The notes under the pieces were generated by a model. The model was given only the letters and a program-made list of their open reading frames with translations. It was not told the DNA's origin and did no database searches. DNA of 64,000 nucleotides from the NCBI GenBank assembly GCA_020283715.1, contig JAIQCW010000088.1, forward strand, positions 37,240 through 101,239, written 5' to 3'. The DNA comes from Cytauxzoon felis. Lineage: Eukaryota; Apicomplexa; Aconoidasida; Piroplasmida; Theileriidae. Position 1 is the first letter of the stretch; every line of letters begins with the position of its first letter. The translations under genes were made by a program, and so were the position numbers. Below are positions 6,502 to 57,762 of the stretch, piece after piece.

Positions 6502-6832
6502 TCAAATAAAGTACTATATCAAGCTTTTGTTCATCCAAGATACTTCTATCCTTCCAACAAATGTGGAATCATACAACTCTCCACTTTAGATCCATCCTTC
6601 TTCCACCTGAGGTCTAATCCAACTCTTCTCCACTCGCCGTGGTGGCTTCCTCTATTTATCTATCTCTAAAGAGTAGAGCCACTCCCGGAGATCGTGGTAA
6701 GGGAAGATATGATTGGATATAGGGTTGAATGAGCAATGATTGTTAGATTGTTCACTTAGAGGTGGATGGGTATATTATGGCAATGTATAATATTTTAATT
6801 TAAGTAAAATTAAATTTACATGGTATTAATTT
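6502..6832. other. Intergenic region between convergent genes
   Basis: 331 bp between the helicase stop and the minus-strand S1-gene stop. It holds a partial MHE (6602-6698); the rest is AT-rich with no gene seen. Confidence 0.6.
6602..6698 (+). repeat. MHE copy 1 (partial, A-B-D only), intergenic
   Basis: Modules present are A (TCCACCTGAGGT), B hairpin (CCACTCGCCGTGGTGG) and D (CTCTAAAGAG stem, then GCCAC..GTGGT). Module C is missing. Confidence 0.85.
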
Positions 6833-9800
6833 TTAATTCTCGGATTGTTTCCCGAAGTCGGGATAATGCTCGTCATCGACTATAGGCCCATCAGTGTTTT
6901 CGATGATCTTCTTATAGGTTGGTATGCGTTCGTAGATGAATTTGGGTGGTAGTATGTCGAGTACATTATCGATATTAACATCATCAATATTAATATTTAA
7001 ACGTTTAAGCATCATTTGAAATCTACGATTACCTTTCAATAATCTCAATTTGATATTTAAATCCTTCAATTTATCATCTTGTGTCATTTCAACAACATTC
7101 GGTACATGTTTATCAATGCCCTCGGGATAATATGTATACTTTTTATTATTTAGAACCTTTGGTTTCGGTCTCAATAAATTTACATACCTCTCCATATTAG
7201 GATCATCACGTCCAACAATCCTACATAAATTTATATAATTCACACGTGAAATTACCTATCAATCTCCTCAAGCTCCTTCGCGGTCAAACATTTCTTTGCC
7301 ATTCTAACCAACTTCTTATAACCCCTATCCTTATGTCTAAAGAACTTCCTCAAATCATATCCAGATGAATCTTCCATCAAAAATTCTTCATCAAAGGAAG
7401 TATTATAATTGAGTTGTCCATCGTTATGTGCATCTCCTTTACCATTAAATTGATCTTCTCTACTCGAGGTCATCCACTCGCCGTGGTGGCTTCCCTTAAT
7501 TATCTCCCCCTCCGCTTCCCCGAGATCAGCTGCGGGTACCACTTGAGGTCCAATCACTAGACTTCTGCCACGATCTCTGGGAGTGGCTTTACTCTTTAGA
7601 GATAGGTAATTGGAAGAGCTCTCTGCAAGAGAATGCGAGGTGGATTGGACATCAAGTGGAGAGCTCTCTGCAAGAGGATGCGAGGTTGTAATCTTCGAGG
7701 TATCTTTTTTATTATTGGCTTCGATTAAATTCTTGTATTCATTTGGTTCGAATTTAGTGTATAGGTATGAGCCAGTGACATTATCAACGTATTTTTTTAT
7801 CCTGTTATAATTTGGTAAATATTGCCTGCGTATATTTTTAATTTTATCATTTTCATCGATATTTTCATTATTTTCCCCATTTTCATCGATGTCCCCACAT
7901 GATGTCATTGACTTTACTTCATTTAATATTTCTGACATGTTTATTATATCAACAGATGAGTTTCCAACTTCATCATCAACACTGATATTTTCCCCTTTTA
8001 AGTTGAAATTCAATAAATCGTCTTTTATACCCTCAACATCTCTACAAAATTTCTTGCAAATTTTATACATCTTCTCCTTATCAATCGGTTTCCCTACAGC
8101 ACCATTAATTGAAGGATTTTTACCCGACATTGAATGCCCAACATTAGACGTTTGTTGTTCATTGCCCGGTCGTCGTCTCCCGTCACCAATAATTGTTGGT
8201 GATGTGAACCCATTGTCATTGAATTCCATAGCCTTTAATACATGTAGTGGTATTGTACTGTAATTATAATAATAAAATTGAAAGATAAACATACGGTATC
8301 TCCTCATCTACTTGACTAGACTTCTTGTGCTGCAGAAGGTTCTCACCCGAGGTATTTCCACCGGGTGTTCCACCTGAGGTTGTCCTGCCGTCAGCTTTTT
8401 TATTTACTTCTCCCTCCGCTTCCCTGAGATCAGCTGCGGGTTCCACTCGAGGTCCAATCACTATACTTCCACCACGATCTCTGGGAGTGGCATTACTCTT
8501 TAGAGATAGGTAATTGGAAGAGGCCTCCACGGCGAGTGGAACAGTGGTTGTAACCTCAGGTGGAGAGCTTAGGGCAGGATTGACATCTAGTGAAGAGACC
8601 CTAAGTTCAGTGGAAAGTCCTTTAATATTCGACGACTCACTCACAATATTCTCTGAGTTAGATAATGAATTGATCGGTTTATTGACTGGATCATCTTCGT
8701 CTAAACCTGCTACCATTTTCTTGTGGTGATATATAGATCTTGGTCCGAATGTGCTAACATCCTCACCAAATAATGCAGAAGCACCTTTAGCATCATCTTC
8801 ATCTGTTCCGATGATTTTGTTGGAGTATTCAAATGGGTTAAAATGACGTGTTTCCCTAATCATATGAGCCAACTCTACAACTTCAGGGTCTTTATCCTCT
8901 TCAAATCTTTTAATCATTGAATCAACATATTCAGAATGTTCTTTGGATGTTGTGTCAATTTCTGGTGTAGAATACAAATCTGTTACATTTTTTATAGCTG
9001 ACGTAGTATATTTTTTCTTATTCTCAGATAAGTTACTAGGAGGTGGATTGAATGCCTCCCATAATGCATTGACAAGATTATGACGATTGTCTATAGTATT
9101 CTCTCTTGTATCCTCAGATAATGATTTATAATTTACAGTTTCACCTTGAATATCCCTTAATGCTGATGTCATTTCATCTGTCACAATGTTGAAATATTCA
9201 TTCGTTTTATTCTCATTGAAAGGTGTATATATGTTATCATCCCATACACCACTAACGCCATATTTATATATCGACCTCTCATTCGGTTTAGGTTCTATGG
9301 CTGTATCAGCCAAATCACCAATCTCAAATGCCAACCTATATTAATGAAATGGTATATTAAAGATAAAAACATACTTATTGAACTTATGTTTCTCCCTATT
9401 CAATTCTTGTTTAGTCATTTTGTCAGGATTCTTAAATAAACTTGCTTGCTGTTCTTTCAACTCCTTCTGACGCTGAAGATTCTCCAAATATAATAAATGC
9501 TCAACCGTTGAATTACGAAAACCACCAACCTCCTTTAAATACTCATCATAACCACCCAATAATTTCATTTGCTCAATCTCACGAACACGAAGTTCTTTCA
9601 TCATATCACGCTTATAATCTCCCAAATATGCGGCTTGTTTTTCCAATGTCTCCTCACCTGTCATTACACGATTGTCTAAATCCTCACTCAATGAATTTTC
9701 AGATAATCGAATCCTATATTATAATTATGTACCCAGTGAATGAAATAGCAAATCGTCATAAAGTAAACTTCCTTCCAGTAGATGTGGAGCCTATCTGCAA

Positions 9801-11046
9801 GACAAAGGAAGTATCGAGGGAACGTCAATGGATGACGACTGCTCAAAGCTAGTTTATGGTATATATTGGATATTTACCTATTTCGGATTAGATCAATGGA
9901 TTTAATATATAATCTGGGTATAGTCGCACCCACATAAATCGGTTGTCTTTTGATTCCAGTGATGTGTTTGGGTAGTTTGCGATCGCGTACGTGTAAAAAT
10001 GCATCGACACTGGCACCTATGTCTATATAAAAACCTAATGGGCATGCACGTTTGACCTTCCCAGAGACACATTCTTCAACCTATAGTGTATTGACAAAAA
10101 TATAAAATTCTAGGTGATACCTTATACGAGTGTATTGGTCGGCGTAATCTCTCTTCATGATAATCAACTTCAAGTAATGACAACCTTAAACTTCTACCAC
10201 GTGGTTCAATGTGTTTTACATAAACAGCTATATCTTCACCAGATTTTAAACTTAAATCTACACGATCTATCCAACCTTCACTCATATCACGCGCGTGTAA
10301 TATACCATAACAAGTAGATCCAACGTCGATCAACGCATATGTAGGATATGCCACTGCAACTCTACCCACTATCTTCTCACCAATACTATAAAACTGAGGA
10401 CTCAAACGCTTAGGATTCTTCGTTATACGCCACCTCTATATATATCAATGTAATTAAAGAATACAATGAAGGTTGTTGTACGGGTAGAGTCATCCAATTA
10501 TATCCAATCCTCATTATCGCCACGATCTCTGGGAGTGGCTATACCGTTTACGGGGAGATAATCAGAAGAGCTGACGGCAGGAAAGACCTCAAGTGGAGAA
10601 GCCTCCACGGCGAGTGTAAAAGAAGATTGACTAAGTATACAACACTTAAATTACATGATATTTCCGTGATATACCTGTGTAAGATGAGCTGGTTTTCCAT
10701 CTGGGAATAGTGGTTTTCTTAATAGTAAATCCATATCATGTTCTAGGATGGCTTTAACTAGCCTTTTACTTATGTATCTGTAAGGTTGATGTAGATATAA
10801 AAAGTAAACAAACTGAAGCTTTATATTACATTTGGGAGTGCTTTTGGTGGCCTCAAAACCTTTGACATCATTTTCCGGTTGTAAGAGATTGAACTTAATT
10901 TTTTTGAAAGTAGCTGTTTCTTTGACTGGTAAAGTGTTTAATTTATACTTGAATGATGATAAATGTGTATTGTTGTTTATGTAGAATGGTATTACAAATG
11001 TCATTAAATGGCAGAATATAATAGGAATTGATGTGTAAAGCAGCAT
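6833..11046 (-). CDS. S1-domain protein with signal peptide, probably plastid-targeted; eight exons
   Basis: The exons join in phase (about 11046-10830, 10777-10675, 10435-10121, 10080-9878, 9713-9375, 9335-8295, 8257-7256, 7220-6833) into roughly 1,200 residues. The start MLLYTSIPIIFCHLM is a signal-peptide-like segment followed by a Lys-rich stretch, as in apicoplast-targeted proteins. Exons 3 and 4 hold two S1 RNA-binding domains (GEKIVGRVAVAYPTYALIDVG; CVSGKVKRACPLGFYIDIG), as in ribosomal protein S1. The long acidic C-terminal half is unrecognised and carries two in-frame MHE copies. The 164-nt intron 9714-9877 is the least certain join: without it the S1 part would stop at a TAA just past 9878, and the rest, which has no obvious own start, would be a separate gene. 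The ATG overlaps the upstream FAS1 stop codon by one base. Confidence 0.65.
7460..7690 (-). repeat. MHE copy 2, in exon of the S1 gene
   Basis: Sense orientation, frame open across all modules ([14 protein letters not shown] and ADLGEAEGEI). B cassettes are CTCTCTGCAAGAG (twice) and the CCACTCGCCGTGGTGG hairpin. Confidence 0.9.
8343..8567 (-). repeat. MHE copy 3, in exon of the S1 gene
   Basis: Complete element in sense orientation, open in the canonical frame ([27 protein letters not shown]). Flanked by A modules in inverse orientation. Confidence 0.9.
10519..10618 (-). repeat. MHE copy 4 (partial, D plus B), intron of the S1 gene
   Basis: Sense orientation inside the 239-nt intron 10436-10674. 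The D stem is the variant CCGTTTACGG (10544-10553). Confidence 0.85.
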
Positions 11047-12881: not shown

Positions 12882-14620
12882 ATGCAGTTACCCAAATACA
12901 TCGAACAGAATCCTAATCGCTTCCTGTTCACCTCTGAATCTGTCAATGAAGGTCATCCAGATAAAATCTGTGATCAAATTTCAGATGGTATTCTTGATGC
13001 ATGTCTATTAAAGGTATTTTTCAATAATTTTAATTTTTCTATACATTTCATCTTCATTACTACAGGATCCAGAAAGTAAAGTCGCATGTGAAGCCTGTGC
13101 TACGAAAGATTTTATACTCATTTTTGGTGAAATTTCTACACTCGCCAATATTAATTATGAACAAGTCGCCAGAGATGTCATTAGGAATATTGGATACACA
13201 TCCGATAAATATGGACTGGACGCGGATACCGTCGAAATCGCCATCAAAATTAACCAACAAGCACCAGAAATCGCTAACGCTGTACATATTGGTAAAAATG
13301 TCGACGAAATTGGAGCCGGTATGTTAATATCCAAACATAAAGGAATAACACAATCGAGCTATCATGCACCTTATCATTCTCTTGTGGAGGACCCTTCACC
13401 TGAGGTTACAACCTTATATTCCACTAGGCATAGTAACTCATCAATTGAGGTCAATCATGCCGTCAGCTCCTTCATTTACTTCCCCGTAAACGGTAATGCC
13501 ACTCCCAGAGATCGTGGCGGTTAGAAGGTATGGATTGGACCTCAAGTGGAACCCGCAGCTGATCTCTGGGAAGCGGAGGGAGAAGTAAATAAAAGAGGCG
13601 CCACGCCCAGTGGAAAGAAACTACATCAGGTTGTGTCGAGTGAAAATAAATGGCTCTGAGTGTAAGATTTGCTGATAGATTATGATTTATTCATTGTTTT
13701 TTCTTGATTGTATATGTATTCTTATAGGTGATCAGGGTATAATGTTTGGTTATGCTACTAATGAGACACCGGAATTTATGCCATTATCGCATATATTGGC
13801 TACAAAATTGGGTGAGCGTTTAGCTAAAGTTCGGAAATCTAATATAATTCCTTATTTATGTCCGGATGGTAAGACTCAGATAACTGTGGAATATTCTAGG
13901 ACACCGGATGGTAATTTAGAGCCTAAAAGAGTTCATACTATAGTTATATCTACACAACATGAAGAAAATGTGAGTATTAATTAATAATATATCCCTCATT
14001 TTTATATATTTTAGATTAATATTGATCAATTAAAATCGGATTTGATGGAACATGTTATTAAAAAGGTTATACCACATGATTTTTTAGATGATAATACAGA
14101 TTATTTATTAAATCCATCAGGTTCATTTGTTAATGGTGGACCAGGTTCAGATGCTGGTTTAACTGGACGTAAAATTGTAGTTGATACATATGGTGGTTGG
14201 GGTGCTCATGGTGGTGGATCGTTTTCTGGTAAAGATTGTACAAAAGTTGATAGATCTGGTGCATATTATGCAAGATGGGTAGCAAAATCATTAGTATATA
14301 ATGGTTTTTGTAAAAGAGTATTAGTACAAATATCATATTCTATTGGTATTGTAGAACCATTATCATTACATATAAATTGTTATGGTACATGTGCTAATGG
14401 TTATACAGAAAAAGATCTTGAACGTATTGTTGTCAGAAATTTTGATTTTAGAGTAGGTTATATTATCGAACAATTACAACTTAAAAGACCAATCTTTAAA
14501 AAAACCTCAGTATATGGACACTTTGGTAAAAATGATCCCGACTTTTTATGGGAAATTCCTAAAGATCTTTCTCATGAAAAAAATAATCATATCCAACTAT
14601 GTAATCATGTCAAACATTAA
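12882..14620 (+). CDS. S-adenosylmethionine synthetase
   Basis: Four exons (12882-13013, 13066-13318, 13728-13969, 14015-14620) give about 410 residues. The enzyme makes S-adenosylmethionine from methionine and ATP in the cytosol. Diagnostic segments are [18 protein letters not shown] near the N terminus, [13 protein letters not shown] split by intron 2, [21 protein letters not shown], and [24 protein letters not shown]. All are intact, so the enzyme should be active. Intron 2 (409 nt) cuts exactly between GAG and DQG and contains MHE copy 5; the other introns are about 45-52 nt. Confidence 0.96.
13396..13616 (+). repeat. MHE copy 5, intron 2 of S-adenosylmethionine synthetase
   Basis: Sense orientation but the frame is broken right after ATPRDRGG by a TAG, unlike exonic copies. 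The D stem is the variant CCGTAAACGG. Confidence 0.9.
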
Positions 14621-14635: not shown

Positions 14636-15096
14636 TTCCACTCGAAGTTACCTCTACCAACGGTCTAACATCTATTCGTCCTGCAGACAGCTCTTCCAAT
14701 TACCTATCTCTAAAGAGTAATGCCACTCCCGGAGATCGTGGCAATGATGGAGGTGATGAGGAAAAACAGCAAATATCAACCCGGAAGAACGTAGATGTTC
14801 AACCCGTAAGAACAGGAAATCTACCCGGAGGAACAAAAGATGTCAACCCGGAAGAACAGACATTGAACGTAGTTAATGGACCTCAAGTAGATGTGGAGAA
14901 CCCGGAGCTGATCTCAGGGAAGCGAAGGGGGAAGTAAATTGAGAAGGCCTCCACGGCGAGTGGAACGACCTCATGTGGAACCCGTAGCTGATCTCAGGGA
15001 AGCGGAGGGGGATGTAAATAGAAAAGCTGTCTGCAAGACGACCTTGAGTGGTACGGCGAGTGGAAAGTACAGTAGGATTGTAACCTCAGGCGGAGA
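14636..15096 (+). repeat. MHE copy 6, composite with two C modules, intergenic
   Basis: Lies in the 813-bp gap between S-adenosylmethionine synthetase and GatA, plus orientation. It has one D, a spacer with repeated ACCCGGAAGAAC-like units (shared with copies 11 and 14), and two C modules in tandem. The remainder of the gap (15097-15433) is AT-rich with no gene seen. Confidence 0.9.
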
Positions 15097-15433: not shown

Positions 15434-17930
15434 ATGTATATTATAATAATTTTATATTTGTTATTTATTGATGTTATTAGTTTCAAGTGTTTATGCACTG
15501 ATGTATCCTATTTGAAATCAAATTTTTATATAGGAAGAAATAAATATTATAATGATCCATTAGGTTTTATAAAATCTGATTATTATAGATTTAATAATAA
15601 AAATAAAGTTTATGATAATATAAATTATTTTTTTAATAAATTTGATGAATTAAATGATGATGTTATAAAAAATGAAGTTTATAATACTATTGGATGGGAA
15701 TATATTAAGAAGTCTTTAAATTCATTAATAAATAATGATGATAATGAAGATACTTGTGACATTAATAAATATTTTAGTTTTAAAACTATACTTAATAAAT
15801 ATGAAATTTATAATCAAGTATTAAATATAGTTAATTATAGTAAAAATGGTAATGATGATAAATTGAAATTATTTGGTATACCAATTGCTATAAAAGATAA
15901 TATGGCATTAAAAGGTATTAAATTTACTGATGGTATGTTAATTATATTTATACATCAAGCATCTTACTTCTAGGTAATGATTTTATTAATGATTTTAAAT
16001 CAACTTATACATGTACGGCTGTTGATATTCTAATAAAATCCGGTGCTATTATCATTGGTAAAACTAATTTAGATGAATTTGGTGTAGGTGCTGAAACTTT
16101 ACATACTATAAATCCAAATTGTATCGGAAAAGCAACTGGTGGTTCATCCGGTGGATCAGCAAATGCTGTAGCCGGTAATATTGTTATTGCAGCACTAGCC
16201 ACTGATACAGGTGGATCAGGAAGATTACCAACAGCCTATTGTGGATGCGTAGGTTATAGACCATCCTATGGACTCGTTAGTAGATATGGAATGAGCGAAT
16301 TGTCAGCTAATTTCGATTGTATCAGTATTGCCGCATCAAATATAAACAATGCAAAACTCATACTCAAACAAGTCGCACAATTCGATCCCAAAGATATGTA
16401 CAGTATCAAATCTACACATGTCATACAAGAACTCAATAATAACTGTAAGTCAATAACAAACATAATAACATGATGGTTGTCTACCTGAAGTCCAATCCTA
16501 CCATCCATTCCACTCGCCGTTCCATCTGAGGTTACATCCACCTTCCTTCGTCTTGCAGACAGCTTTCTCTATTTACTTCCCCCTCCGCTTCCCGGAGATC
16601 AGCTACGGGTTCTCCACCTGAGGTCCAGTAGTACTCTTCATTCCACTCGCCGTGGTGGCCTCTCTATTTACCTCACCTCGACTCCCATGGATCGTCTCGG
16701 ATTCTTCGCCACGATCTCCGGGAGTGGCTTTACTCTTTAGAGATAGGTAATTGGAAGAGACCTCCACGGCGAGTGGAAGACAAGGTTGTAACTTCAGGTG
16801 GAGTTGGATGGAAGAGAGGTTGGACTTATTGTAGGTGTAACTTCAAGAGAAGAGAGTATGATTTATTTATTCTTTACTTTCATTACTTTAGTTGTGCCAT
16901 CTATTGAGAATATTAGGGTTGGTATTTTTGATAAGGATAAGTTACTTGAATCACGTCTCATTGACGAATACATTTATAACGAGTTGAATTATGTCGAGGA
17001 GTTATTAAAGAGATTGGGCATTGAAACACATATAGTTGAATATATCAACCTCGATGATGACGCTAAAGTATACCATACATTTGTAGCTACACAAATCGTC
17101 TCGAATATACAACGATTTAAAAATAAAATTTACACCAATAGCAATGCTCAACTCGAAGATATCATCAAACCCAAAACATTACACAGATACAAAATGGGTA
17201 CGTTTATACAATAATACATCTATATCCAACCATCTCTACCAAATACCAATCCACCTCCCTAGTCCTGCAGACAGCTCTTCTCCACATGAGGTCCATCCTG
17301 CCGTCAGCTCTTCTAATTACCTATCTCTAAAGAGTATAGCCACTCCCAGAGATCGTGGCAATGAAGAAGGTAGTGATGTAACCTCAAGTAGAAAATCCGT
17401 AGCTGATCTCAGGGAAGCGGAGGGGAAGTAAATAGAGAAGCTCCATGCAATGGAAAAGATGAACCTCAGGTGGAGGAGCTGTCTGCAAGACGAAGAGAGT
17501 TGGATTGGACCTAGGTGTAAGATCTGCTAGTAGACTATGATTCATAATATTATCATAGGTATGGATGCGATACGTGAAATTGATTATGAAAAGTTGTTAT
17601 CTGATGAGCTCGTTCTATTGAAGAATTGGATAGAACGAAATGGTATATTTACGCGCTTGGATTATGTGATCATGCCAGTATCGGCTATAGAGACTCCACC
17701 AAAAAGTTACAAGAGCAGTACATTATCAGAGGTAATGTGATTTATAGTCTATATGATACATGAATATACAGGGTGAACGTTTTACTACTGTATCAGCTAT
17801 GTTAGGCTTGTGTTCGATATCTATACCATTAAAGAATAAGAATAAGACTTCAGCTATACAAATTATGGGTGCATATATGCAAGATTCGAAATTATTAGAA
17901 TTTTCTTCAATATTGGAGAAGGTATTATAA
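15434..17930 (+). CDS. gatA: Glutamyl-tRNA(Gln) amidotransferase subunit A, apicoplast type
   Basis: Five exons (15434-15932, 15974-16444, 16892-17197, 17559-17731, 17772-17930) give about 535 residues. GatA is the amidase subunit that releases ammonia from glutamine so that GatB can convert Glu-tRNA(Gln) to Gln-tRNA(Gln). The amidase signature is intact: Lys in IAIKDNMAL, GKATGGSSGGSANAVAG, and the nucleophile region ATDTGGSGRLPTAYCG. The N terminus MYIIIILYLLFIDVIS is a signal peptide followed by an Asn/Lys/Tyr-rich segment, typical of apicoplast import. Introns 2 and 3 (447 and 361 nt) each contain an MHE, in opposite orientations; introns 1 and 4 are about 40 nt. A further 3' exon after 17930 is possible but not needed. 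Confidence 0.93.
16482..16803 (-). repeat. MHE copy 7, GatA intron 2, antisense
   Basis: Composite with two C-type modules, the second being the rare TCGACTCCCATGGATCGTC version shared with copy 27. It is antisense to the host gene. Confidence 0.9.
17263..17516 (+). repeat. MHE copy 8, GatA intron 3, sense
   Basis: Complete D and C modules. The right-hand B cassette reads TCCATGCAATGGA, a hairpin that differs from the usual ones yet keeps complementarity. Confidence 0.9.
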
Positions 17931-18156: not shown

Positions 18157-19132
18157 ATGATGAATAATGATAAATTCGAATGTAATATCTGTTTTGATGA
18201 TGTTAAAGAGCCCGTTGTTACTGTATGCGGTCATTTGTTCTGTTGGAATTGTATACTCACATGGATGAATCGCGATAATTACCAATGCCCAGTTTGTCAA
18301 GCTGCAATTACTAGAGATAACGTCATACCATTATATGGTCACGGACGAGAAAATACAGATCCAAGGTAAGGTGATCTCATCTACTAATTCATCTCCCGCA
18401 TTAGGAATAAACCCACTGAACCTAGACCCAAGCCTAAAAGGCCAACAACCTCTACACCATTTAGTCGTCAATCCAATGTAAGTTGAAGTGTCAACCTACT
18501 TTTATCCATTGGCTATGATATGCCCACCAAATCATCTTCAATGGATGATTGTATGATATTTATATTAAATATTCAGCTTTTTGGTGGTTATAGTAATAGA
18601 ATATCAATATCGATCGGAACATTCCCATTCTCACTAATGCTACCCATGGGATTCAATGCCGGATCAATCGGACTACTCAACATGTTCACCAGCCAAGCCG
18701 ATACATCTCAAATGACAGATGGTACGTTTACTAACATTTCTACTCTAACAGTTGTCTTCCGCCTGAGGTCAGTCCTGCCGTCAGCTCTTCTATTTACCTC
18801 CCCCTCCGCTTCCCTGAGATCAGCTACGGGTTCTCCACCTGAGGTCCAGTAACTATTTTCATTGCCGCCACGATCTCCGGGAGTGGCTCTATTCTTTAGA
18901 GATAGGTAAATAGAAGAGCTGTCTGCAAGACGAAGACAAGGTTGTAACCTCGAGTGGAACGGCGAGTGATAGGACACCTAAGTGGAATTGGATAGGAAAG
19001 GGTGTATTATATGGATCTCATTAGATAAAATTTCATGATACATTTATAGAGCAGAGAAGGCTTCATACTAATTCGATGTTTTTGATGTTTACGGGGATAT
19101 TGATAATAACGTATATATTGTTTTGTATGTAA
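18157..19132 (+). CDS. RING-finger E3 ubiquitin ligase, RNF5/RNF185 type
   Basis: Four exons (18157-18365, 18405-18477, 18577-18721, 19050-19132) give about 169 residues. A C3HC4 RING lies at residues 8-50 ([23 protein letters not shown]). A basic Pro-rich linker follows, then a Gly/Ser region with [12 protein letters not shown], and a C-terminal membrane segment ([16 protein letters not shown]). This is the layout of RNF5/RNF185, ER-membrane ligases in ERAD. The tail-anchor exon is reached only by splicing out the 328-nt intron that holds MHE copy 9. Confidence 0.9.
18757..18969 (-). repeat. MHE copy 9, RING-gene intron 3, antisense
   Basis: Complete D and C modules with B cassettes CTGTCTGCAAGACG and CCTGCCGTCAGCT; orientation is opposite to the host gene. 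Confidence 0.9.
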
Positions 19133-21330: not shown

Positions 21331-22198
21331 ATTTATATCATTTACAATTGTAATTTATCAATAAAATAATTACTTTACATTTATAAACATAGAAATTTTA
21401 ATTTATACAACATCAATACAGTACAATGGTATCGATACTAATGTCATGTATCTATACATAAAGGACTATAAAAATACAGTTTATATATTAAAATAACAAA
21501 TATTTATCAAATACCACCTGGTATTTATAATTTTATATCTATTAAATTGTATATTAGATTCTGATGGCATTTTACATTTCCTGTACACCAACCACAAAAT
21601 TGCGGGGATTCAAGATACAAGTTACTAAAGTATCAATGAGAATAATACGAATGAAACTGTAATAAAATACAAACAAGGTGAAATAATGACAACTGTATAG
21701 ATCATCTGACAAAGTGAGTGAATAAAAGATGGAAATGAGAATAACATATACATGTAAATATAAAGGTAATGTAAATTATAGTATAAAGTAAACTTTGTCT
21801 TATCACAACTCTCATTCACTTTTATTATACCCTCATAGATGTCTACTTGAGGTCCAATCCACCTGAGGTTACAACCTTATGTTCCACTCGCCGTGGTGGC
21901 CTTCTCTATTTAGTTGTCCCTTCGCTTCCCTGAGATCAGCTTCGGGTTCTCCACTTGAGGTCCAATACAACACATCCTTAGCACCATCTTCCATCATTCC
22001 CATGATGGATGATCCATCACTACCTTCGCCACGATCTCTGGGAGTGGCTATACTCTTTAGAGATAGGTAATTGGAAGAGGCCACCACGCCTAGTGGAACA
22101 GTGGTTGTAACCTCAAGTGGAGTCAACATCGTGTAAAATTCATTCATCTTTTTCTTCAGTTGATGTTCTTCTTTAGTTTCATGTAATATTTAAATTTA
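21331..22198. other. Intergenic region with one MHE
   Basis: 868 bp between the coiled-coil gene start and the phospholipase stop, both minus strand. The stretch 21331-21842 is AT-rich with no gene seen; MHE copy 10 fills 21843-22122. Confidence 0.6.
21843..22122 (-). repeat. MHE copy 10, intergenic
   Basis: Complete element in the orientation of the phospholipase gene. An open frame of 92 codons (22147-21869) spans it. The spacer carries the extra hairpin CCATCATTCCCATGATGG, shared with the SART3-gene copies 22 and 23. Confidence 0.9.
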
Positions 22199-24916: not shown

Positions 24917-25008
24917 TATTATTTAAACTTCCATTGATTAGGATAATATATAGATTTAATATACATATTTAATCAACTAAATTTTCTATTATACATTTGA
25001 AATTAATA

Positions 25009-40379: not shown

Positions 40380-40587
40380 CCACCGAGGTCCAATATCTTC
40401 AACTCTTCCACTAGGCGTGGTGGCCTCCTCTATTTATCTCCCCTTCCAGCTCCCGTAGATCGCTTCCAGGTTCCACTCGAGGTCCAATATCTTCACCTCT
40501 TCCACTAGGCGTGGTGCCTCTTCTATTTATTTCCCCTTCCAGCTCCCATAGATCGCTTCCAGGTAGTCCACTTGAGGTCCAATCACT
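40380..40587 (-). repeat. MHE copy 19, two C modules without D, intergenic
   Basis: Two tandem A-B-C units of the DLRELEGE type. The D module expected next is found about 245 bp away (copy 20), so this may be one element split by an insertion. Confidence 0.85.
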
Positions 40588-40831
40588 AACATCTTTTTAC
40601 CTCTGAATTTTGAAGGAAATCCTGAATTTCTGTGGAAACTCATGAAGATATCTCAATGATTAATAGATGAAATTTAAATCTCAATACTTCATTCAAGGGG
40701 ATTTTGATGATTCTATATGATTCACATATCCTCATCTCATTCCATTTTATATTCATTGAGATATCTGAACAAACATTGATTCCGTCACTTTATCCTTATC
40801 TCGCCGAGATTAGATTTATAACCTCAACCTC

Positions 40832-45704: not shown

Positions 45705-45750
45705 TATTTTATAACTATCATATATTATACAATCTTATTTCATAATTATA

Positions 45751-48640: not shown

Positions 48641-49313
48641 TTTTATACTCAATTCTCATTTACTTTTATCAAGCAATATATAATCAGTTCCACACCTGCA
48701 TACTCTCTCTATATATATGTATATGTATAAACCTCCCCTACATTAACATCAACTACAACTAATATTAAATATTACAATCTTACTCAACTATCTTATTAAA
48801 TGAAAATATCTTTAAATCAATTTTTATTTTAATCCAATATCAATTTCTAATAAACTCAATATTATATATCAGTCAAATAAAATATTAACCTGTCATTGTC
48901 TATCTCACAGATTACTACCCATGAACAATCCACATTAGGTTCAATCCAACTCTCTACATCCTGACGTCAGCTCTTCCACTAGGCGTGGTGCCTCTTCTAT
49001 TTACTTCCCCTTCCAGCTCCCGTAGATCGCTTCCAGGTATTCTACTTCCACTTGAGGTCTCCACTCGAGGTCCAGTACTACTTCCACTTATGCCACGATC
49101 TCTGGGAGTGGCATTACTCTTTAGAGATAGGTAATTGGAAGAGGCCACCACGGCGAGTGGAAGACAAGGTTGTAACCTCAAGTGGAAAAGCTGTCTGAAA
49201 GACGACCTCAGGTGGAACGGCTAGTGGAAGAAGAGTAAGTAAATGTGAATAAATTATGAACAAAATTAATGGTTAGGATGAATGTATGTAAAGGTAAATG
49301 ATTTGTTTCAAAT
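48641..49313. other. Intergenic region with one MHE
   Basis: 673 bp between importin alpha and the next minus-strand gene. 48641-48929 is AT-rich with nothing recognised. Confidence 0.5.
48930..49230 (-). repeat. MHE copy 28, intergenic
   Basis: Complete element, C of the [10 protein letters not shown] type, with a CTGACGTCAG cassette (perfect palindrome) at one end. Confidence 0.9.
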
Positions 49314-50271
49314 CTATTTCTTTCCCTTTTGCTTACGCTTAGAAGCGGGTTCTTCATCTTCAGATTCTTCTTCCTCTTCTTCTTCCTCCTCGTCAACTAA
49401 TTCATCATCTTCATCTTCACTATCTGATACAAAACTATCCTCTTCTGGTTCAAAATATCCAACCAAATGTACCTCATTCTTACCACCCTTTGTAGTCAAT
49501 TTCAAACCACCCAAAGTAGAAAAGAATACATCAACAGTTGCCTATACAATAATTAAAATTAATCAAAATATATACAACACTCAATACAATAGACAATTAT
49601 CCACCTCTCTTTGTCTTGCAGACAGCTTCTCCACCTGAGGTCCATCCTGCCGTCAGCTCTTCTATTTACTTCCCCTTCCAGCTCCCGTAGATCGCTTCCA
49701 GGTAGTCCACTTGAGGTTACATCCATACCTTCTCATCGCCACGATCTCCGGGAGTGGCTATACCGTTTACGGGGAGATAAATAGAAGAGCCAACACGGCG
49801 AGTGGGAAGAGTTGGATTGTAACCTAAGGTGGAACTACAAGGAAAGGACTTAAGGTTAATATCTGTCTACAAAATCAAAGGAAGGTTGTAGGTAGACAGA
49901 ACACGTTGGGAATTATTATGTAGGGTAGGATCCGAGGATGTATGAGGAGGAACAAATGTTGATAAAGCAGGGAGAAGGATGGTGATATATCGTGGATCGT
50001 ATATAAATAAATTGAATAAAGTAAAAGATTGGTGAATACGATAATGAATGTCTAGTCTAGAGGATAGAAATAAATTTCAACTTACATGTTCATGTACACC
50101 TTTTTGGAGTGTGCAGATATTGTATGCTTTATCACCATCTACAAGTTGTACATATGTTCTTTCATTACTAGTAGGTTCATTGAGACATATTTGTGACAAA
50201 TGGACAATATTAGCGAGATCATTCTTGGGGGTAACGGAACTGCCAGGTGCAATAACAGCTCCAAACAACAT
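49314..50271 (-). CDS. Nucleoplasmin-like (NPL) histone chaperone
   Basis: Two exons (50271-50086, 49541-49314), about 138 residues. [12 protein letters not shown] begins the NPL beta-sandwich, with [19 protein letters not shown] and [14 protein letters not shown], the conserved end of the FKBP-NPL/HD2 fold. A long Asp/Glu tract and a basic C terminus (SKRKQKGKK) follow, typical of histone-binding chaperones in the nucleolus. No FKBP domain is present. The intron is 544 nt and contains MHE copy 29. Confidence 0.85.
49610..49834 (-). repeat. MHE copy 29, intron of the NPL gene, sense
   Basis: Complete; D stem variant CCGTTTACGG (49763-49772); C of the [10 protein letters not shown] type. Confidence 0.9.
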
Positions 50272-51281
50272 CTTTATCAAACTTTCAAGAAGGAATAAAT
50301 TAATCAGTAAAAATTAAATATGATTTGATAATGAATCTAATAAAATTTTTTTTGTTTGTTGATCTTTTATTGGGTAAACAACAGCAACAATAACTCGGTC
50401 CAATAATGTGGATCACATCTATATATTATATGTATCACAAGCTATAGTAAAAAAATCAATATTTAGTCATCATATAATTATAATAAATATAAATCAAATA
50501 GATTTTGAATCAAATTTTATCTTCTTCTAAAAATTTTTCAATTCCTACAAAGTCTTGTCATGAAAATTCATGTCTACAGCCACACCCTATGATCAATACT
50601 TTGTCATCCAACGCCTATAGTCATATGATTCCATCGTTCATATGTCAGGTTTAACTTTATATAATTTACTCTAATTTATTCCCGGCATTGTCATCATCCA
50701 TTAGTCCCATCGAACATACTCGAACTAGACCTTAAGATCATACTATGAACTCACTAACCGCTCTACTCTATTCATTGTTCAATGCAGGTCTCCATTTTTG
50801 ATAATATATCTAACCCGAAGTTATAATCGTCTCGCTTTCTCCTGCAGAGAGCTCTTCCAATTACCTATCTCTAAAGAGTAGAGCCACTCCCGGAGATCGT
50901 GGCTGAGAGAAGTCAATGATTGGACCTCAGGTGGAATACCCGCAGCTGATCTACGGGAAGCGGAGGGGGAACTAAATAAAGAAGCTGACGGCAGGACGGA
51001 CCTCAGGTAGAGGCGAGTGGGAACAGAAGGTGTAGAGAAGACAGTGATTGAACCTTAAGTGGAATACCCGAAAGTGATCTACGGGAACTTGAGGGGGAGG
51101 TAAATAGAAGAGCTCTCTGCAAGAGGAACAATGGCTGTAACTAGAGGTAGAGGTGTCATACTAGACTGGATCTAATATTAAAGACCTATCGGGTAGACAA
51201 TGTTTTAGTTATTATGCTTCTTCTCGTATATTATAGTTGAGTTGTATAATATATATATGATTGTTTAATATATTATTGTAT
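50272..51281. other. Intergenic region with one MHE
   Basis: About 1 kb. 50272-50837 is AT-rich with no ORF or RNA gene that I recognise; MHE copy 30 follows. Confidence 0.5.
50838..51151 (+). repeat. MHE copy 30, composite, intergenic
   Basis: Plus orientation: D, then C of the DLREAEGE type with a variant base (GATCTACGGG), then a second C of the Leu-Glu type, with B cassettes CTGACGGCAGG and CTCTCTGCAAGAG. Confidence 0.9.
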
Positions 51282-52171: not shown

Positions 52172-52627
52172 AAATTATTTAACATAGTAAATTTAATGAA
52201 GGAATATTCAATGAATAATCTATAATCACCTATGGGTCACATAATTTCTGCTTTATACTCTACCTCCACCATTAGTCTGAGTCACCTTGTTTTTCATTGC
52301 ATGAATCTCTCCACCTGAGGTTACAACCAATGTTCCACTCGGCGTGGAGCCCCCTCTATTTACCTATCTCTAAAGAGTAGAGCCACTCCCTGAGATCGTG
52401 GCAGTGAGAAGGTATGGATTGGACCTCGAGTGGAACCCGCAGCTGATCTCAGGGAAGCGGAGGGGGAGGTAATTAGAGAAGCTGACGGCAGGAATGTGAC
52501 CTCAGGTGGAAAAACAGTGGAATGAGGAGTAGGACTGGGCATCAGGTGTATGCTGACGGCAGGATGAAGAAGGATTTGTAGTTATCTTTGATGGATAGCT
52601 TCAAAAATATTAAACTTATGTTTGATG
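52172..52627. other. Intergenic region between convergent genes
   Basis: 456 bp between the uS17 and NSRP1-like stops, mostly occupied by MHE copy 31. Confidence 0.6.
52303..52565 (+). repeat. MHE copy 31, intergenic
   Basis: Plus orientation, complete D and C; one end carries a GCATGAATCTC degenerate cassette, the other CTGACGGCAGG. Confidence 0.9.
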
Positions 52628-53416: not shown

Positions 53417-54559
53417 ATGATGGATGACGAAGAAGGTCGTTTATTTAGATGTCGTAGGACATGTTGCGAGATGTTGGAAGATCGCGGCTACTTTATACCC
53501 AGCCAGGAGAAATTGGAAACATTTGCTGAGTTTAAGGCTAGATATGAACTTTATGATAGAACGTATGTTTTTTATTATATAATTTACTGGATATTCAATA
53601 TAGGCGTTCAAAAATGTTATTGGTGGCATCACAAAGAGCTGCTTCAGAAAATAAATTACTAGTATACTTCGCTGATGAGACTAAAAAGACCGGTGTTAAG
53701 CCTATAAGAGAGTAAATTCCTTATGTAAAACTAAATATTCGTTATATTAGATTAACTGAACGTATGGAAGACCATGATATTCATCGCGCAATTTTAGTAA
53801 CACAAAATGTATTAACACCATTCGCTAAAGATGTAAGTAGAATACTTCTACATCTATTCACTTAATATCTCCTACCTCCAGGCCATAATGGAAGCGTCAC
53901 CCAGGAATATTATTGAGAATTTTATGGAGACTGAATTACTAGTATGTAAGATCATATGAAATTTTAAAATCTATAGGTCAATATAACAAGACATGAATTA
54001 GTACCCAAACATATACCACTCACAATGGAAGAGAAACAAAATCTTCTACAAAGATATAAAGTATGCTTTTACATCAAAAATAAATATTATATCATAGGTC
54101 AAAGAAAGCCAAATACCCAGAATACAATCCGCAGATCCCGTCGCACGATATTTTGGACTATCCAAAGGACAGGTTTGTTTCTAAAAATGAAATAAACAAG
54201 TCATTATCTATCCTATGGACTTCCACCTGAGGTTACAATCCTACTCTCCTTCCCACTCGCCGTTCCACCTGAGGTTAGTCTTGCAGACAGCCCTTCCAAT
54301 TACCTATCTCTAAAGAGTATAGCCACTCCCGGAGATCGTGGCGATAATAAGGATTGGACCTCGAGTGAAACCCGCAGCTGATCTCAGGGAAGCGGAGGGG
54401 GAGGTAAATAGAGAAGGCACCACGCCTAATGGGAAAGAAAGTTGGATTAGACCTAATTTTAAACTCCTTCGTGTTTGATATAAATATGTATAGGTTGTGA
54501 AGATAATTCGTCCGAGTGAGACAGCGGGTAGATATGTGACATTTCGTTTGGTGGTGTAG
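53417..54559 (+). CDS. RPB5: RNA polymerase subunit RPB5 (RPABC1), shared by Pol I, II and III
   Basis: Seven exons, all but one intron about 35-48 nt. The N-terminal jaw domain starts [19 protein letters not shown] with [15 protein letters not shown]; the C-terminal assembly domain has [20 protein letters not shown], then [19 protein letters not shown] and the final exon [21 protein letters not shown]. The last intron (54173-54493) holds an MHE and interrupts the most conserved motif ([19 protein letters not shown]), so splicing must be exact. About 210 residues, the normal size. Confidence 0.96.
54219..54455 (+). repeat. MHE copy 32, last RPB5 intron, sense
   Basis: Complete D and C; B cassettes CTTGCAGACAGCC and GCACCACGCCTAATGG. 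Confidence 0.9.
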
Positions 54560-54584
54560 CATGTATGGTATAATCGCAATAGAT

Positions 54585-56171
54585 TTAAGGATATTTAATA
54601 TCCCAAATGTAAGAATTGCCATCATTAGATGTAGTGATTAGGTGATTACAGTTGAAATTAAATTTGACATCGATAATATTGGCCGAGTGATCATTCATTA
54701 TATGTTTAATATTAAGAGTTTTAGTTTCTAATAATTTTATACATCGATCCCATGAGCTTAAAGCCAATAACGCACCATCATTTGAGATGTCCATATATGA
54801 TATACCAGATAATGTAGTGATTGATTTCAGAACATCAAATTTATTACCTGACAGATAGAGCATTGTAACTACACCCTTAGTATCACCGATTATTAAGATA
54901 TTCTTCCATATAGCAAGGCCTGGTATACTTTCCAACGTATCCATAACGTATACTACGCAAGGTTTTTTTATGTTCCTCAAGTCATGTATAGCGATAGTTG
55001 CCGATTCATATGTTGAAATAATATAATTAGGACCAAGCTGAGGGTAAAATCTACAATGATGTAATATACCCAACTCCTTCTTAACTGAATGTACAACGTC
55101 AAATGGCTCTAACATATGCGTCACGTTATAATCTATAATTAAAATGTAGTAAATACTATTTTGTCTATCAGAATGAATCGCTATCCTACTTAATATTCCA
55201 CTAGGCCTTCTCACCTGAGGTTACAAACTTCTCTTCCACTCGCCGTGGTGGCTTCTTCCAATTACTCCCCGTAAACGGTATAGCCACTCCCAGAGATTGT
55301 GGCGAAAGTAATGATTGGACCTCAGGTGGAACCCGCAGCTGATCTCAGGGAAGCGGAGGGGGAGATAAATAGAGAAGGCCTACACGGCGAGTGGAAGACA
55401 AGGATTGGACCTCAAGTGGACAATTAATGGAATGGAAAATATAATCATCGATAGAATAAGAATTACCTTTGGTATTGATTCTAAAGTCTATGGTTTTGAT
55501 GATATTTTCCTTTTCTGGTACGAGTACGAGTGGATTGACATTATCTTCGACGGAAATTCTGGCAAATGATGTCATTTTATTATCAAATTTACAATAAATC
55601 TTATCATTATTTACATCATACAATGATACATACAAGTCATTCTGGATCACCAAATGGTCATCTGAAATTTAAAAAAAATAATTCCACATAAGACAATCAC
55701 TCTCTTCTTCCCATGCGCTGTCCCTTTGTCTTGCAGACAGCTCTTCTATTTACCTATCTCTAAAGAGTAAAGCCACTCCCAGAGATCGTGGCGTAGGTGA
55801 AGGTAGGGATTGGACCTCGAGTGGAACCCGTAGCTAATCTCAGGGAAGCGGAGGGAGAAGTAAATAGAGAAGGCCTCCACGGCGAGTGGAAGACCTCGGG
55901 TGGAGAGCTATCAGCAAGAAAAGGAAGTTCAATGGATAATAATTCATGGTATGGTTAATACTTTTGCACATGTAGACATACCTATTGGATGATAAGGTAC
56001 AACAAACCTTAATAGTTCATCGACTGCATTTGTTTTCAAGATATTACCTACTTGGATATCCCATTTGGAGATAATACCGTTGGCTGAAGTGGTTAGCAAC
56101 TGATCATGGTATTCTCTAGCTGATGTGAATCCATTTATACTTCTTATACACATCAAAGTCTTGACCTTCAT
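54585..56171 (-). CDS. WD40-repeat protein, possibly GNB1L/ASTRA-associated type
   Basis: Three exons (56171-55982, 55661-55467, 55132-54585), about 310 residues. WD40 motifs are YHDQLLTTSANGIISKWDI near the N terminus and ISYMDISNDGALLALSSWDRCIKL, IIDVKFNFNCNHLITTSNDG and NSYIWDI at the C-terminal end. The short two-ended propeller, with Trp-Asp near an end of similar length, recalls GNB1L/ASA1. Both introns (320 and 334 nt) carry one MHE each, antisense. An ATG at 56214 is out of frame with 56171, so I chose 56171. The stop is 25 bp from the convergent RPB5 stop. Confidence 0.7.
55196..55423 (+). repeat. MHE copy 33, WD40-gene intron 2, antisense
   Basis: D stem variant CCGTAAACGG (55269-55278); the GCCAC..GTGGC stem has a one-base change in the loop. 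Confidence 0.9.
55706..55918 (+). repeat. MHE copy 34, WD40-gene intron 1, antisense
   Basis: Common D stem, complete C, B cassettes CTTGCAGACAGC and CCACGGCGAGTGG. Confidence 0.9.
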
Positions 56172-56373
56172 TTAATATTAGAATATTGAAGTTGATAATG
56201 TTATTGTTCGACATTTTTATTTAGGTGCCCTAAAGTGGCCTATTGATGGAATAAGGTGTTTTGGGAGTATTAAAGTTAACCCCCGACATGGGCAAGGGTG
56301 AATGATATGTATACATTGTCAAATACTATAATTATTACTAAATTAATAATGTCGTCAATAAAATATTTTAAAA

Positions 56374-57762
56374 ATGAGTAAATTGTATTATATATTGACG
56401 ATACGTAGGAATTTCGCTGGTACACTTCATCATGGGTTGAAGCAATCCATTAGAATGCCAGCGGCGAGTGAAAGACCACTATTTAGAAATGTATTTGATA
56501 GAGCGGATCATCCAAAATTGTGGTTAAAGGATACAAATAAATATGATCGTGATCATCCAGCTAAAACATTGAGTGATTTAGTTGTACCACATGGTCATGG
56601 TCACGCGTTTGGTAATAGTAGTACTTGGAGATATGGACATTATGTTAATGTATGGGAGCCAATATTCCCTAGAACACCAGATTTATCTAAAGGTGAATTA
56701 ATATCTGGTGCTAATTTCACACGTACCAGCGGTTGGCATTCACCATTTGAACCCGCTGTTGTATCAGTAGGTAAACTTACACCGGATCATCAAAGACCAG
56801 CTGGATATGCAGAAAATGCACCTGTACCAGACTCTATGAATCCAGAATTGTTCCCAGATTTTAGGGAATATAGAATACCTCCCAATATCGATCGCAGGCC
56901 CGCCATCTACCTCATCACCGCTTCCGCACTGTTCTTCTTCCTCGCATTTGCCAGATCATTCATCTGTAAACTCATTCACTACTTCTGGCTCGCTAAGGTA
57001 TGTTTAACTAATACAGTGTCTCGAATGAAGTATCTTCCACTAGATCTTCTACCTGAGGTCCTTTCCTTCCACTCGCCGTGGTGGCCTCTATTTACTTCCC
57101 CCTTCGCTTCCCTGAGATCAGCTACGGGTTCCACTTGAGGTCCAATCACTACACTTCCGCCACGATATCCGGGAGTGGCTCTACTCTTTAGAGATATATA
57201 AATAGAGGAAGCTGACGGCAGGACGGACCTCGGGTGGAGTAGACAACATTTTCATATAATTTTTGGTTATATATATTATTTTAGGACGTTGCAGCGAGTG
57301 GTTCTGTGGAGGTTAATGTTGGTAATATGTTACCGGGTGATCAGATTACTGTCAAATGGCGTTCTAAGCCGGTGTTTATAAAGCGTCGTACTGATGAGGA
57401 GATTGCTCGTGCAAAGTTAGTTGTGTATTGAAGTAGGGAAAATATTAATTATTTATAGGAAGGACGATACATTACTTGACAGTATGAAGGATCCGCAATT
57501 GGATTCAGAGCGTAATGCTAATCCTGAATGGCTTGTTAATATTGCAATTTGTACACATTTGGGTTGTATACCAACTAAAGGTGGTGATTATGGTGGTTTC
57601 TTTTGTCCATGCCATGGTTCACATTATGATGGATCAGGTTTGTTTATTATATTTAAATCGTATTAAACATTTATAGGGCGTATAAGACGTGGACCAGCAC
57701 CAGCTAATTTGGAGGTACCGCCTTATCAATTCATTGATGATAACACAATCAAACTTGGATAA
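56374..57762 (+). CDS. Rieske iron-sulfur subunit of cytochrome bc1 complex
   Basis: Four exons (56374-56997, 57285-57415, 57459-57637, 57677-57762) give about 339 residues. The N terminus ([14 protein letters not shown]) is a mitochondrial presequence. A membrane anchor lies near residues 180-205 ([18 protein letters not shown]). The 2Fe-2S ligands are in CTHLGC and CPCHGSH, with [12 protein letters not shown] after them. It moves electrons from ubiquinol to cytochrome c1 in the inner membrane. Intron 1 (287 nt) has an antisense MHE, placed exactly between the anchor and the soluble head. Confidence 0.96.
57035..57242 (-). repeat. MHE copy 35, Rieske intron 1, antisense; last copy in the window
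   Basis: Complete D and C. No MHE module is found from here to 64000. Confidence 0.9.

What the first reader, a model, noticed from the sequence alone, without database searches (positions are those of the whole stretch)
6602..57242. A dispersed modular hairpin element (MHE), about 35 copies in 51 kb
The same set of short modules recurs in intergenic DNA, introns and exons: A (TCCACYTGAGGT), exchangeable B hairpins, D (CTCTAAAGAG plus GCCAC..GTGGC) and C (reads [11 protein letters not shown]). Outer A modules face each other as inverted repeats, and inner edges share TTCYAATTACC/TTCTATTTACTT as a second inverted pair, so the whole looks like a small non-autonomous mobile element with no coding capacity for its own movement. 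I know no named piroplasm or eukaryotic element with this build. The closest idea known to me is the Rickettsia palindromic element, which also inserts in frame in genes.
Basis: partly seen in the sequence, partly recalled or inferred. Interest (0 to 1): 0.97.

Follow-up and report, generated by a model that had tools for sequence, protein, structure and literature searches.

The report
Palindromic mosaic repeat invading parasite genes
The genome of the cat parasite Cytauxzoon felis is peppered with a small patchwork DNA element, in and between genes, that can sit inside protein-coding sequence because it can be read without a stop in one fixed frame; I found no description of anything like it in a cell nucleus.

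Summary
The window (36 clusters of at least three modules, plus one in an intron) lies in an 8.62-Mb genome with 6,584 exact A words and 2,489 exact D words; reversed-word controls give 0. A primer from the Cytauxzoon felis genome paper matches once, so the organism is C. felis or very close. Its vaccine candidate cf76, cloned from cDNA, carries two copies. Copies lie between genes, in an intron and in exons. Of 67 D copies sampled, the 15 in stop-free frames of at least 200 codons all share one strand and frame. In phenylalanyl-tRNA synthetase beta a copy adds about 125 residues between conserved stretches. Stem words change on both sides together; the C word keeps its peptide (pN/pS 0.40 in that frame, 0.58-1.82 in the other five). 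No target-site duplication, no mobility enzyme (few families sought), no RNA-folding excess. Best reading: a non-autonomous, protein-coding palindromic mosaic element, working like Rickettsia palindromic elements but in a eukaryotic nucleus. How it moves is not shown.

The parts
54279..54291 (+). Worked example: left B cassette (B2 type, TCTTGCAGACAGC)
54292..54307 (+). Worked example: left inner edge CCTTCCAATTACCTAT
   Evidence: edge table
54308..54317 (+). Worked example: D1 dyad CTCT-AA-AGAG
54322..54342 (+). Worked example: D2 word GCCAC-TCCCGGAGATC-GTGGC
54358..54369 (+). Worked example: inner A word (degenerate, ACCTCGAGTGAA)
54371..54399 (+). Worked example: C word CCC GCA GCT-GATCTCAGGGA-AGC GGA GGG (reads [10 protein letters not shown])
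54404..54416 (+). Worked example: right inner edge GTAAATAGAGAAG
6602..6699 (+). element copy, not in a long ORF
7473..7676 (-). element copy in stop-free ORF 7255-8307 (-), frame 0
8369..8564 (-). element copy in ORF 8267-9340 (-), frame 0
10518..10597 (-). element copy, partial (D, B, A)
13385..13625 (+). element copy inside the GT-AG intron (13319-13727) of the S-adenosylmethionine synthetase gene; ends set by eye
14637..15039 (+). element copy, two pieces (14637-14743 and 14915-15039) around a mini-repeat spacer
16550..16802 (-). element copy
17262..17491 (+). element copy
18772..18958 (-). element copy
21858..22121 (-). element copy with the optional F segment (core word 21973-22018)
24337..24746 (-). 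element copy (two clusters) in ORF 22202-24922 (-) with a sub-threshold patatin match, frame 0
25647..25871 (-). element copy
26472..26703 (-). element copy in ORF 25866-26867 (-) with an AAA match, frame 0
27270..27571 (-). element copy in ORF 26845-27960 (-), frame 0
28258..28437 (-). element copy in ORF 27933-28625 (-), frame 0
29568..29757 (-). element copy
30330..30532 (+). element copy in CRAL_TRIO ORF 29726-30988 (+), frame 0
35691..35885 (+). element copy
40407..40579 (-). left arms (B-C-A twice) of a compound copy with the long (L-class) core
40590..40815 (+). 226-nt AT-rich L-class core; 394 first-look candidates genome-wide, 40 of them scored
40833..40900 (-). D-B right side of the same compound copy
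41914..42031 (-). element piece in ORF 41653-43998 (-), frame 0
42175..42584 (-). element copy in ORF 41653-43998 (-), frame 0
43615..43789 (-). element piece in ORF 41653-43998 (-), frame 0
43948..44410 (-). element copy (two clusters) in PRP39-like ORF 43824-45734 (-), frame 0
46221..46458 (-). element copy just downstream of an importin-alpha coding stretch, probably intronic
47172..47437 (-). element copy between coding runs of one strand, probably an intron
47814..48111 (-). element copy, same setting
48975..49216 (-). element copy, same setting
49613..49759 (-). element copy
50839..51125 (+). element copy
52310..52565 (+). element copy
54222..54403 (+). element copy (the worked example above runs on to about 54435)
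55235..55420 (+). element copy
55728..55904 (+). element copy
57068..57238 (-). element copy

Best explanation
A non-autonomous interspersed element of the nuclear genome of Cytauxzoon felis, mostly 100-300 bp, with about 2,500 D-bearing copies. It is built from short dyad-symmetric words: arms of tandem A-B units, and a centre of D1-D2 and C. It lies between genes, in introns and in exons. The D-class is stop-free in one frame of one strand, so exonic copies survive in that strand and frame and add a hydrophilic peptide to the host protein. Shown: copy number, anatomy, exonic frame, one insert between conserved stretches of an old gene, one copy-bearing gene amplified from cDNA. Inferred: it inserted as a mobile element with an enzyme supplied in trans (not identified), and copies are then reshuffled by ectopic gene conversion and by slippage of A-B units, which gives independent B cassettes, fuzzy ends and mosaics.
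For: Copy number with zero-count controls; the sample of 230,684 nt has the genome's density (exact D 67 seen, 66.6 expected; exact A 165 seen, 176 expected). Exonic frame: at >=200 codons 15 of 15 D copies are in sense frame 0 (67 D copies examined); in 20 of 22 ORFs >=150 aa holding D or C every copy is in frame 0 (one of the 20 is the S-adenosylmethionine synthetase frame that runs into its intron). Insert in an old gene: in PheRS beta 138 query residues stand against 13 of chain 7dpi_B. In cDNA: cf76 carries two copies, and its N-terminal fragment spans 720 bp in the genome, the size the paper gives for the product amplified from cDNA. Intron: S-adenosylmethionine synthetase, GT-AG, junction reads GAGDQG. 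Peptide constraint: pN/pS 0.40 in frame 0. Gene conversion: a pair in one gene identical over 322 nt, beginning 39 nt outside the first A word and ending at the end of C. Independent cassettes: matched B 8 of 37, shuffled mean 8.4.
Against: No target-site duplication (23 of 67 copies tested). No autonomous partner found; only five families were sought and one of these searches is uninformative. No empty site in a sister strain or species was seen; the one insert case is against distant orthologues, and the right-hand stretch of that alignment is weak on its own (i-Evalue 0.017, 0.17 and 0.12 in the three chains shown). The frame rule is partly a consequence of the element's own stops, and the class 'exonic' was defined by an open frame. 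At lower or other thresholds there are exceptions (see the full report).
Confidence: 0.7

Rival explanations
1. A conventional MITE: a deletion derivative of a DNA transposon, moved by cut and paste by a transposase, now extinct or not recognised.
For: Inverted arms; a second class with a nearly constant core (the 40 scored of 394 candidates align over about 208-226 of 226 nt; 39 at 81-86%, one is the query itself) and A-B-C-A arms.
Against: No TSD signal; B cassettes of the two arms independent; no hits for Y1, DDE_3 or MULE families, whose controls rang; ends fuzzy.
Confidence: 0.3
2. A dispersed host-serving motif (protein-binding dyads, or RNA signals in pre-mRNA) that is kept by selection at many genes.
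For: Stem words covary; non-exonic copies between same-strand coding runs lie in sense 18 of 24 (7 of 7 in gaps under 700 nt).
Against: RNA folding no better than shuffles, 8 of 8; copies lie inside exons, one between conserved stretches of a tRNA synthetase; two of the seventeen extra loci (L011, L024, 10 kb each) have no module hit at all, so it is not needed at every gene.
Confidence: 0.12
3. Introner-like elements: the A words supply GT and AG splice sites (GAG|GT ... AG|TGGA) and the copies are spliced out of exons.
For: A words end in AGGT and begin ACCTCAAG in the other arm (sequence); introners with inverted repeats are known from the alveolate Amoebophrya (passages of PMC7789003).
Against: The cf76 fragment amplified from cDNA has, by the paper's figure, the unspliced size; the S-adenosylmethionine synthetase copy lies inside a larger GT-AG intron whose sites are outside the element; exonic copies keep a frame that non-exonic copies lose (D-C spacing a multiple of 3 in 14 of 14 against 23 of 44; partly built in by the definition of exonic).
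Confidence: 0.08
4. Palindromic words are made perfect by template switching in replication (quasi-palindrome correction) and carry no selected structure. This concerns the symmetry only and can hold together with a mobile element.
For: Short arms, D1 with only two central bases, no folding excess, both sides change together.
Against: The set of stems is small and recurrent (four common D1 stems), as for inherited subfamilies; this explains symmetry but not dispersal.
Confidence: 0.3

Closest known systems
Rickettsia palindromic elements (RPE) and the protein-coding palindromes of Wolbachia and Methanocaldococcus
   Same: Short palindromic repeats that sit in frame inside unrelated protein genes, with a conserved peptide (passages of PMC10969869, and of PMC2996958).
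   Different: Prokaryotic; RPEs about 150 bp and 44 insertions in R. conorii by PMC10969869. Here: eukaryotic nucleus with introns, about 2,500 D-bearing copies, a mosaic of exchangeable dyads, a second class with an AT-rich core. Sequence relation not tested.
PARCEL (palindromic amphipathic repeat coding elements, DUF285)
   Same: Coding sequence with dyad symmetry spread in microbial genomes, eukaryotic ones included (abstract and passages of PMC2996958).
   Different: 25-residue tandem amphipathic repeats; no DUF285 match was listed for any of the 31 proteins scanned with Pfam.
Volvox organelle palindromic repeats; double-hairpin and repetitive hairpin elements of mitochondria
   Same: Short palindromes nested in one another, spread through intergenic and intronic DNA (abstract and passages of PMC2670323; the others seen only in a search listing).
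   Different: Organelle genomes, almost wholly non-coding; nuclear copies in Volvox judged inert by that paper.
Introner elements of alveolates (Amoebophrya)
   Same: Inverted-repeat elements spread through an alveolate genome, general transposase mobilisation doubted (passages of PMC7789003).
   Different: They are introns with direct repeats at the splice sites; here the exonic copies appear to be kept in the message in cf76.

Membership tests
Rickettsia-type palindromic element (RPE) | interspersed palindromic repeat in frame in unrelated protein genes | tested here: met
Rickettsia-type palindromic element (RPE) | conserved peptide in the inserted frame | tested here: met
   pN/pS 0.40 in frame 0 against 0.58-1.82 in the five other frames, 62 unique of 88 C words; stem coupling may account for part
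Rickettsia-type palindromic element (RPE) | sequence homology to an RPE family, in Rickettsiales | not tested
   no RPE sequence was compared; the exact D word has one match in genome contigs, without A words nearby, taken as chance
MITE (non-autonomous TIR DNA transposon) | matched terminal inverted repeats | tested here: inconclusive
   A words face each other but B cassettes of the two arms are independent
MITE (non-autonomous TIR DNA transposon) | target-site duplication | tested here: not met
   23 of 67 copies, mean longest shared word 2.83 against 2.88 +- 0.18 shuffled; ends are fuzzy, so the test is weak
MITE (non-autonomous TIR DNA transposon) | autonomous partner with transposase | tested here: inconclusive
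   DDE_3, MULE, Y1: none, controls rang; Helitron search uninformative; other superfamilies not searched
Introner element | element boundaries are the splice sites and it is removed from mRNA | tested here: not met
   two genes only: cf76 and S-adenosylmethionine synthetase
PARCEL | DUF285 / 25-residue tandem amphipathic repeat | tested here: not met
SINE or other RT-moved element | reverse transcriptase source, polyA or Pol III boxes | tested here: inconclusive
   only RT locus found is telomerase; no Rfam match in the window; polyA and Pol III boxes not tested

The most novel reading that the evidence does not exclude
A new kind of eukaryotic nuclear mobile DNA: a mosaic of interchangeable dyad words that multiplies without a recognisable transposase (for example by hairpin-primed template switching and gene conversion), evolves under both dyad and peptide constraint, and has written hundreds of in-frame peptide inserts into the proteome of an apicomplexan. 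Extrapolating 16 of 67 D copies in long sense-0 frames to 2,489 gives about 600 such inserts.
Probability: 0.35. Interest if true: 0.92.

Novelty: new variant of a known kind. Interest (0 to 1): 0.82.

Why it matters
Protein-coding palindromes that insert in frame are described from Rickettsia, Wolbachia and an archaeon; for R. conorii the review gives 44 insertions. Here the same life style appears in a eukaryotic nucleus of about 9 Mb with thousands of copies. From my own knowledge, piroplasm genomes are usually held to be poor in mobile elements. It makes an old question testable: how proteins absorb selfish DNA. It also bears on practice: the cf76 antigen proposed as a vaccine candidate carries two copies, one of them in the C-terminal region that the paper calls immunogenic and in which it reports a 30-bp repeat polymorphism (passages of PMC3748084). 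Other C. felis proteins share the same peptide, which may cause cross-reaction in serology; that last point is inference.

Tried and rejected
Protein database search with the CRAL_TRIO ORF: 2,529 candidates, none at E <= 0.001; one query only, so orthologue empty sites could not be read there. Exact 18S word: 0 hits. RNA folding of eight cores: no excess stability, so a stable-RNA function was dropped. Whole-element hairpin by matched arms: rejected by B independence (30 of 67 D copies dropped because one arm could not be typed). TSD: none (44 of 67 dropped, ends not found or too near a locus end). Codon-flank classifier was too weak: 72 of the 94 elements that it classified showed no coding flank; replaced by stop-free frames. 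L-class core as gene or structured RNA: at least one stop in each of six frames in the 7 core matches of 150 nt or more, no Rfam match, weak covariation (2 of 32 pairs with a double change). My note says that no L-class copy is inside an ORF; that is wrong for one of the seven, which overlaps the end of a coding run. Prokaryotic or viral source: D word in 0 viral contigs, 1 bacterial hit. Results against the frame rule: at >=150 codons 4 of 20 D-spanning frames are not sense 0; at >=200 codons 3 of 25 C-spanning frames are not sense 0 (frames are counted, so one copy may count twice); 2 of 22 ORFs.
Full report
What was checked. Regular expressions give 78 A, 30 D, 31 C-type and 77 B-type hits in 39 clusters; with at least three modules per cluster there are 36. 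Over the 97 such clusters of the larger sample the length runs from 47 to 466 nt, median 186. The repeat finder sees the same thing without prior patterns. The window is contig 53, positions 37240-101239, of an assembly of 8,623,106 bases in 181 contigs. In it the exact A word occurs 6,584 times and the exact D word 2,489 times; the reversed words never occur. A sample of the window plus 17 other loci (230,684 nt) has the density of the whole genome (67 exact D, 66.6 expected; 165 exact A, 176 expected). Clusters of three or more modules cover 7.7% of the sample. The density is uneven: the 10-kb loci L011 and L024 hold no module hit, and L022 and L025 hold 17 and 16 A words.

Which organism. 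A weak FAINT match, below the curated cut-off, pointed to the Theileria group; that this domain marks the group is recalled. A text search for the A word in both strands listed 14 papers, one of them about a piroplasm: the Cytauxzoon felis genome paper PMC3748084. Two of its Table 1 primers for the antigen gene cf76 together cover an A word, a spacer and part of the D word (passages). A 27-nt primer from outside the element matches this genome once, on contig 114. Five further cf76 primers of the paper fall in the fetched gene; the outer forward primer lies outside the fetched stretch, and one primer (reverse fragment 2) was not looked up. The window is therefore from C. felis or something very close. 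The paper reports 9.1 Mb, 361 contigs and 31.8% GC; the assembly here is a different or trimmed one.

Anatomy. In the strand that reads [11 protein letters not shown] the order is: one or more A-B units; an edge such as TTCYAATTACC; D1, a dyad with two central bases; four bases; D2, GCCAC-TCCCRGAGATC-GTGGC; a spacer that usually holds an inverted A word and sometimes extra segments; C; an edge such as GTAAATAGAAGAG, the inverse of the first; and one or more B-A units. One copy is spelled out base by base (54279-54435). D2 and C share the same inner word in inverted form (TCCCnGAGATC and GATCTnnGGGA), so the centre too is a diverged inverted repeat. B cassettes were typed in six dyad types. Left and right B types are independent: 8 of 37 matched, 8.4 expected (30 of 67 D copies could not be typed on both sides). 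A second class has A-B-C-A arms around a 226-nt AT-rich core; the genome holds 394 first-look candidates, and the 40 that were scored align over nearly the whole core, 39 at 81-86% and one being the query itself. The seven core matches of 150 nt or more in the sample have a stop in each of six frames; six lie outside the coding runs called, and one (L023:9842-9999) overlaps the end of one.

Dyads. In the 67 D copies of the sample the D1 stem is Watson-Crick at the four pairs in 65, 67, 66 and 67 copies, with four recurrent stems that differ on both sides: CTCT/AGAG, CCGT/ACGG, CCCT/AGGG, CCCA/TGGG (41 of 44 cells paired in 11 unique words, shuffles 30.8 +- 2.2). In the first 100 D words listed genome-wide, 94 are fully Watson-Crick and 396 of 400 cells pair, against 352 +- 3.4 in shuffles (the search pattern forces the two outer pairs to be pyrimidine-purine, and a few places overlap the sample). 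The inner C stem shows GCT/AGC, AGC/GCT, AGT/ACT and AAC/GTT (27 of 30 cells in 10 unique types, shuffles 21.7 +- 1.7, maximum 27); the outer C stem shows no excess (11 of 12 cells, shuffles 11.0). Shuffles do not correct for relatedness. Folded as RNA, eight cores are no more stable than their shuffles. The symmetry is thus real but is not shown to be an RNA fold; DNA dyads or template-switch correction remain possible.

Genes. Copies lie in three settings. Intron: in the S-adenosylmethionine synthetase gene the first coding stretch aligns to solved chains up to the residues GAG, and joining position 13318 to 13728 reads on as [15 protein letters not shown], with GT and AG at the intron ends and an element copy at about 13385-13625. 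Exon: 22 stop-free ORFs of at least 150 aa hold a D or C word, and in 20 of them every copy is in the same frame; one of the 20 is the synthetase frame just named, which runs into its intron. For D, at 200 codons or more, 15 are in sense frame 0 and none in the other five frames; at 150 or more the counts are 16 in sense 0, and 1, 2 and 1 in sense 2, anti 1 and anti 2. For C, at 200 or more, 22 are in sense 0 and one each in sense 1, sense 2 and anti 2 (105 C words). Between genes: the rest. Of 67 D copies 16 are in long frames of the favoured kind, whereas the C. felis paper gives 66-69% of the genome as protein coding, so exons look under-occupied, although my ORF rule misses short exons.

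Insert in an old gene. In L009 an ORF of phenylalanyl-tRNA synthetase beta (Pfam tRNA_synthFbeta and, below its cut-off, B5) aligns to the solved chain 7dpi_B with query residues 7-83 on chain 357-430 and 222-267 on 444-489. The 138 residues between stand against 13 in the chain; they hold one D and two C words. The chains 7by6_B and 3l4g_B show the same break; the right-hand stretches are weak on their own (i-Evalues 0.017, 0.17, 0.12), and the fourth chain listed was not shown. I recall 7dpi and 7by6 as Plasmodium and 3l4g as human.

In the message. cf76 (L026) holds two element copies, with D words at 699 and 1818. The paper says that the single-exon ORF of 2,172 bp and fragments of 720, 828 and 675 bp were amplified from cDNA and expressed (passages); the genomic distance between the primers of the first fragment is 720. 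The gel itself was not seen. The second copy carries the B-A unit twice (EADGRNVTSGGEADGRNVTSGG, 33 nt each). The paper reports a tandem repeat of a 30-bp sequence in ten of eleven isolates and once in the other; this is probably the same unit, though 30 and 33 do not agree. It also reports 723 aa for the sequenced isolate and about 706 for most others. Figures and supplements were not seen.

Selection. Across 62 unique of 88 C words, pN/pS is 0.40 in the [11 protein letters not shown] frame and 1.37, 1.82, 1.05, 0.58 and 1.51 in the other five; copies outside long frames alone give 0.39 in frame 0 and copies inside 0.43. Since third positions partly pair with third positions, stem coupling may account for some of this. 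The distance from D to C is a multiple of three in 14 of 14 exonic copies that have both words and in 23 of 44 others (Fisher P 0.0009; 23 of 44 against one third P 0.010); the stretch from D1 to C is stop-free in frame 0 in 13 of 14 and 22 of 44. The exonic class was picked by its open frame, so the 14 of 14 is partly built in; the drift in the others is not. The simplest reading is that copies spread from sources kept open in that frame and decay once outside exons. Non-exonic D copies between coding runs of one strand lie in sense in 18 of 24 (P 0.023), 7 of 7 where the gap is under 700 nt (25 of 67 unassigned, 8 between opposite strands, 10 exonic all sense). This is a lead only.

How it moves. 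No TSD signal. The families Y1_Tnp, DDE_3 and MULE give nothing while their controls ring; Helitron gives nothing but its control is silent too. The only reverse transcriptase found is telomerase. One pair of copies in a Sec7 ORF is identical over 322 nt; the identity begins 39 nt outside the first A word, in what looks like host sequence, and stops at the end of the C word. This looks like gene conversion onto a resident copy rather than excision and insertion of a defined unit. I therefore hold insertion as inferred and its enzyme as unknown, and conversion as the likely cause of the mosaic.

Known or not. Ten paper searches listed no description of this repeat in C. felis or any piroplasm. 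In several of them only the top 10-20 of many papers were listed, the library lacks most subscription journals, and supplements were not opened. The nearest systems are the protein-coding palindromes of Rickettsia, Wolbachia and Methanocaldococcus. This works like them. Whether it is related to them was not tested, and kinship would not be expected.

Noticed in passing
window 40590-40815: A second interspersed family: 226-nt AT-rich core in A-B-C-A arms, 394 first-look candidates genome-wide, 40 scored (39 at 81-86%, one the query itself); no open frame through it, no Rfam match.
   Followed up: partly
window 21973-22018, 42324-42369, 43800-43845: An optional segment with its own palindrome (core word CATCCTTAG...GATGGATGATCCATC) in the spacer of three copies; possibly a nested insertion of about 51 nt, a multiple of three.
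   Followed up: no
window 14779-14855, 24479-24555, 27394-27470: Mini-repeats TTCYTCCGGGT, three per copy (reading NPEEQ), inside three element copies.
   Followed up: no
L026 (contig 114), about 540-840 and 1740-1990: The vaccine candidate cf76 carries two element copies, one in the C-terminal part; the published 30-bp repeat polymorphism is probably a B-A unit.
   Followed up: partly
L027 (contig 56, about 73.7 kb): Telomerase reverse transcriptase gene (Telomerase_RBD E 1.1e-25), the only RT locus found.
   Followed up: yes
L010:8109-8430 and 9342-9663: Two element copies 1,233 nt apart in one Sec7 ORF, identical over 322 nt including 39 nt outside the first A word.
   Followed up: partly
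window 58199-59359: ORF on the minus strand with a weak FAINT (DUF529) match, E 0.00098, below the curated cut-off.
   Followed up: no
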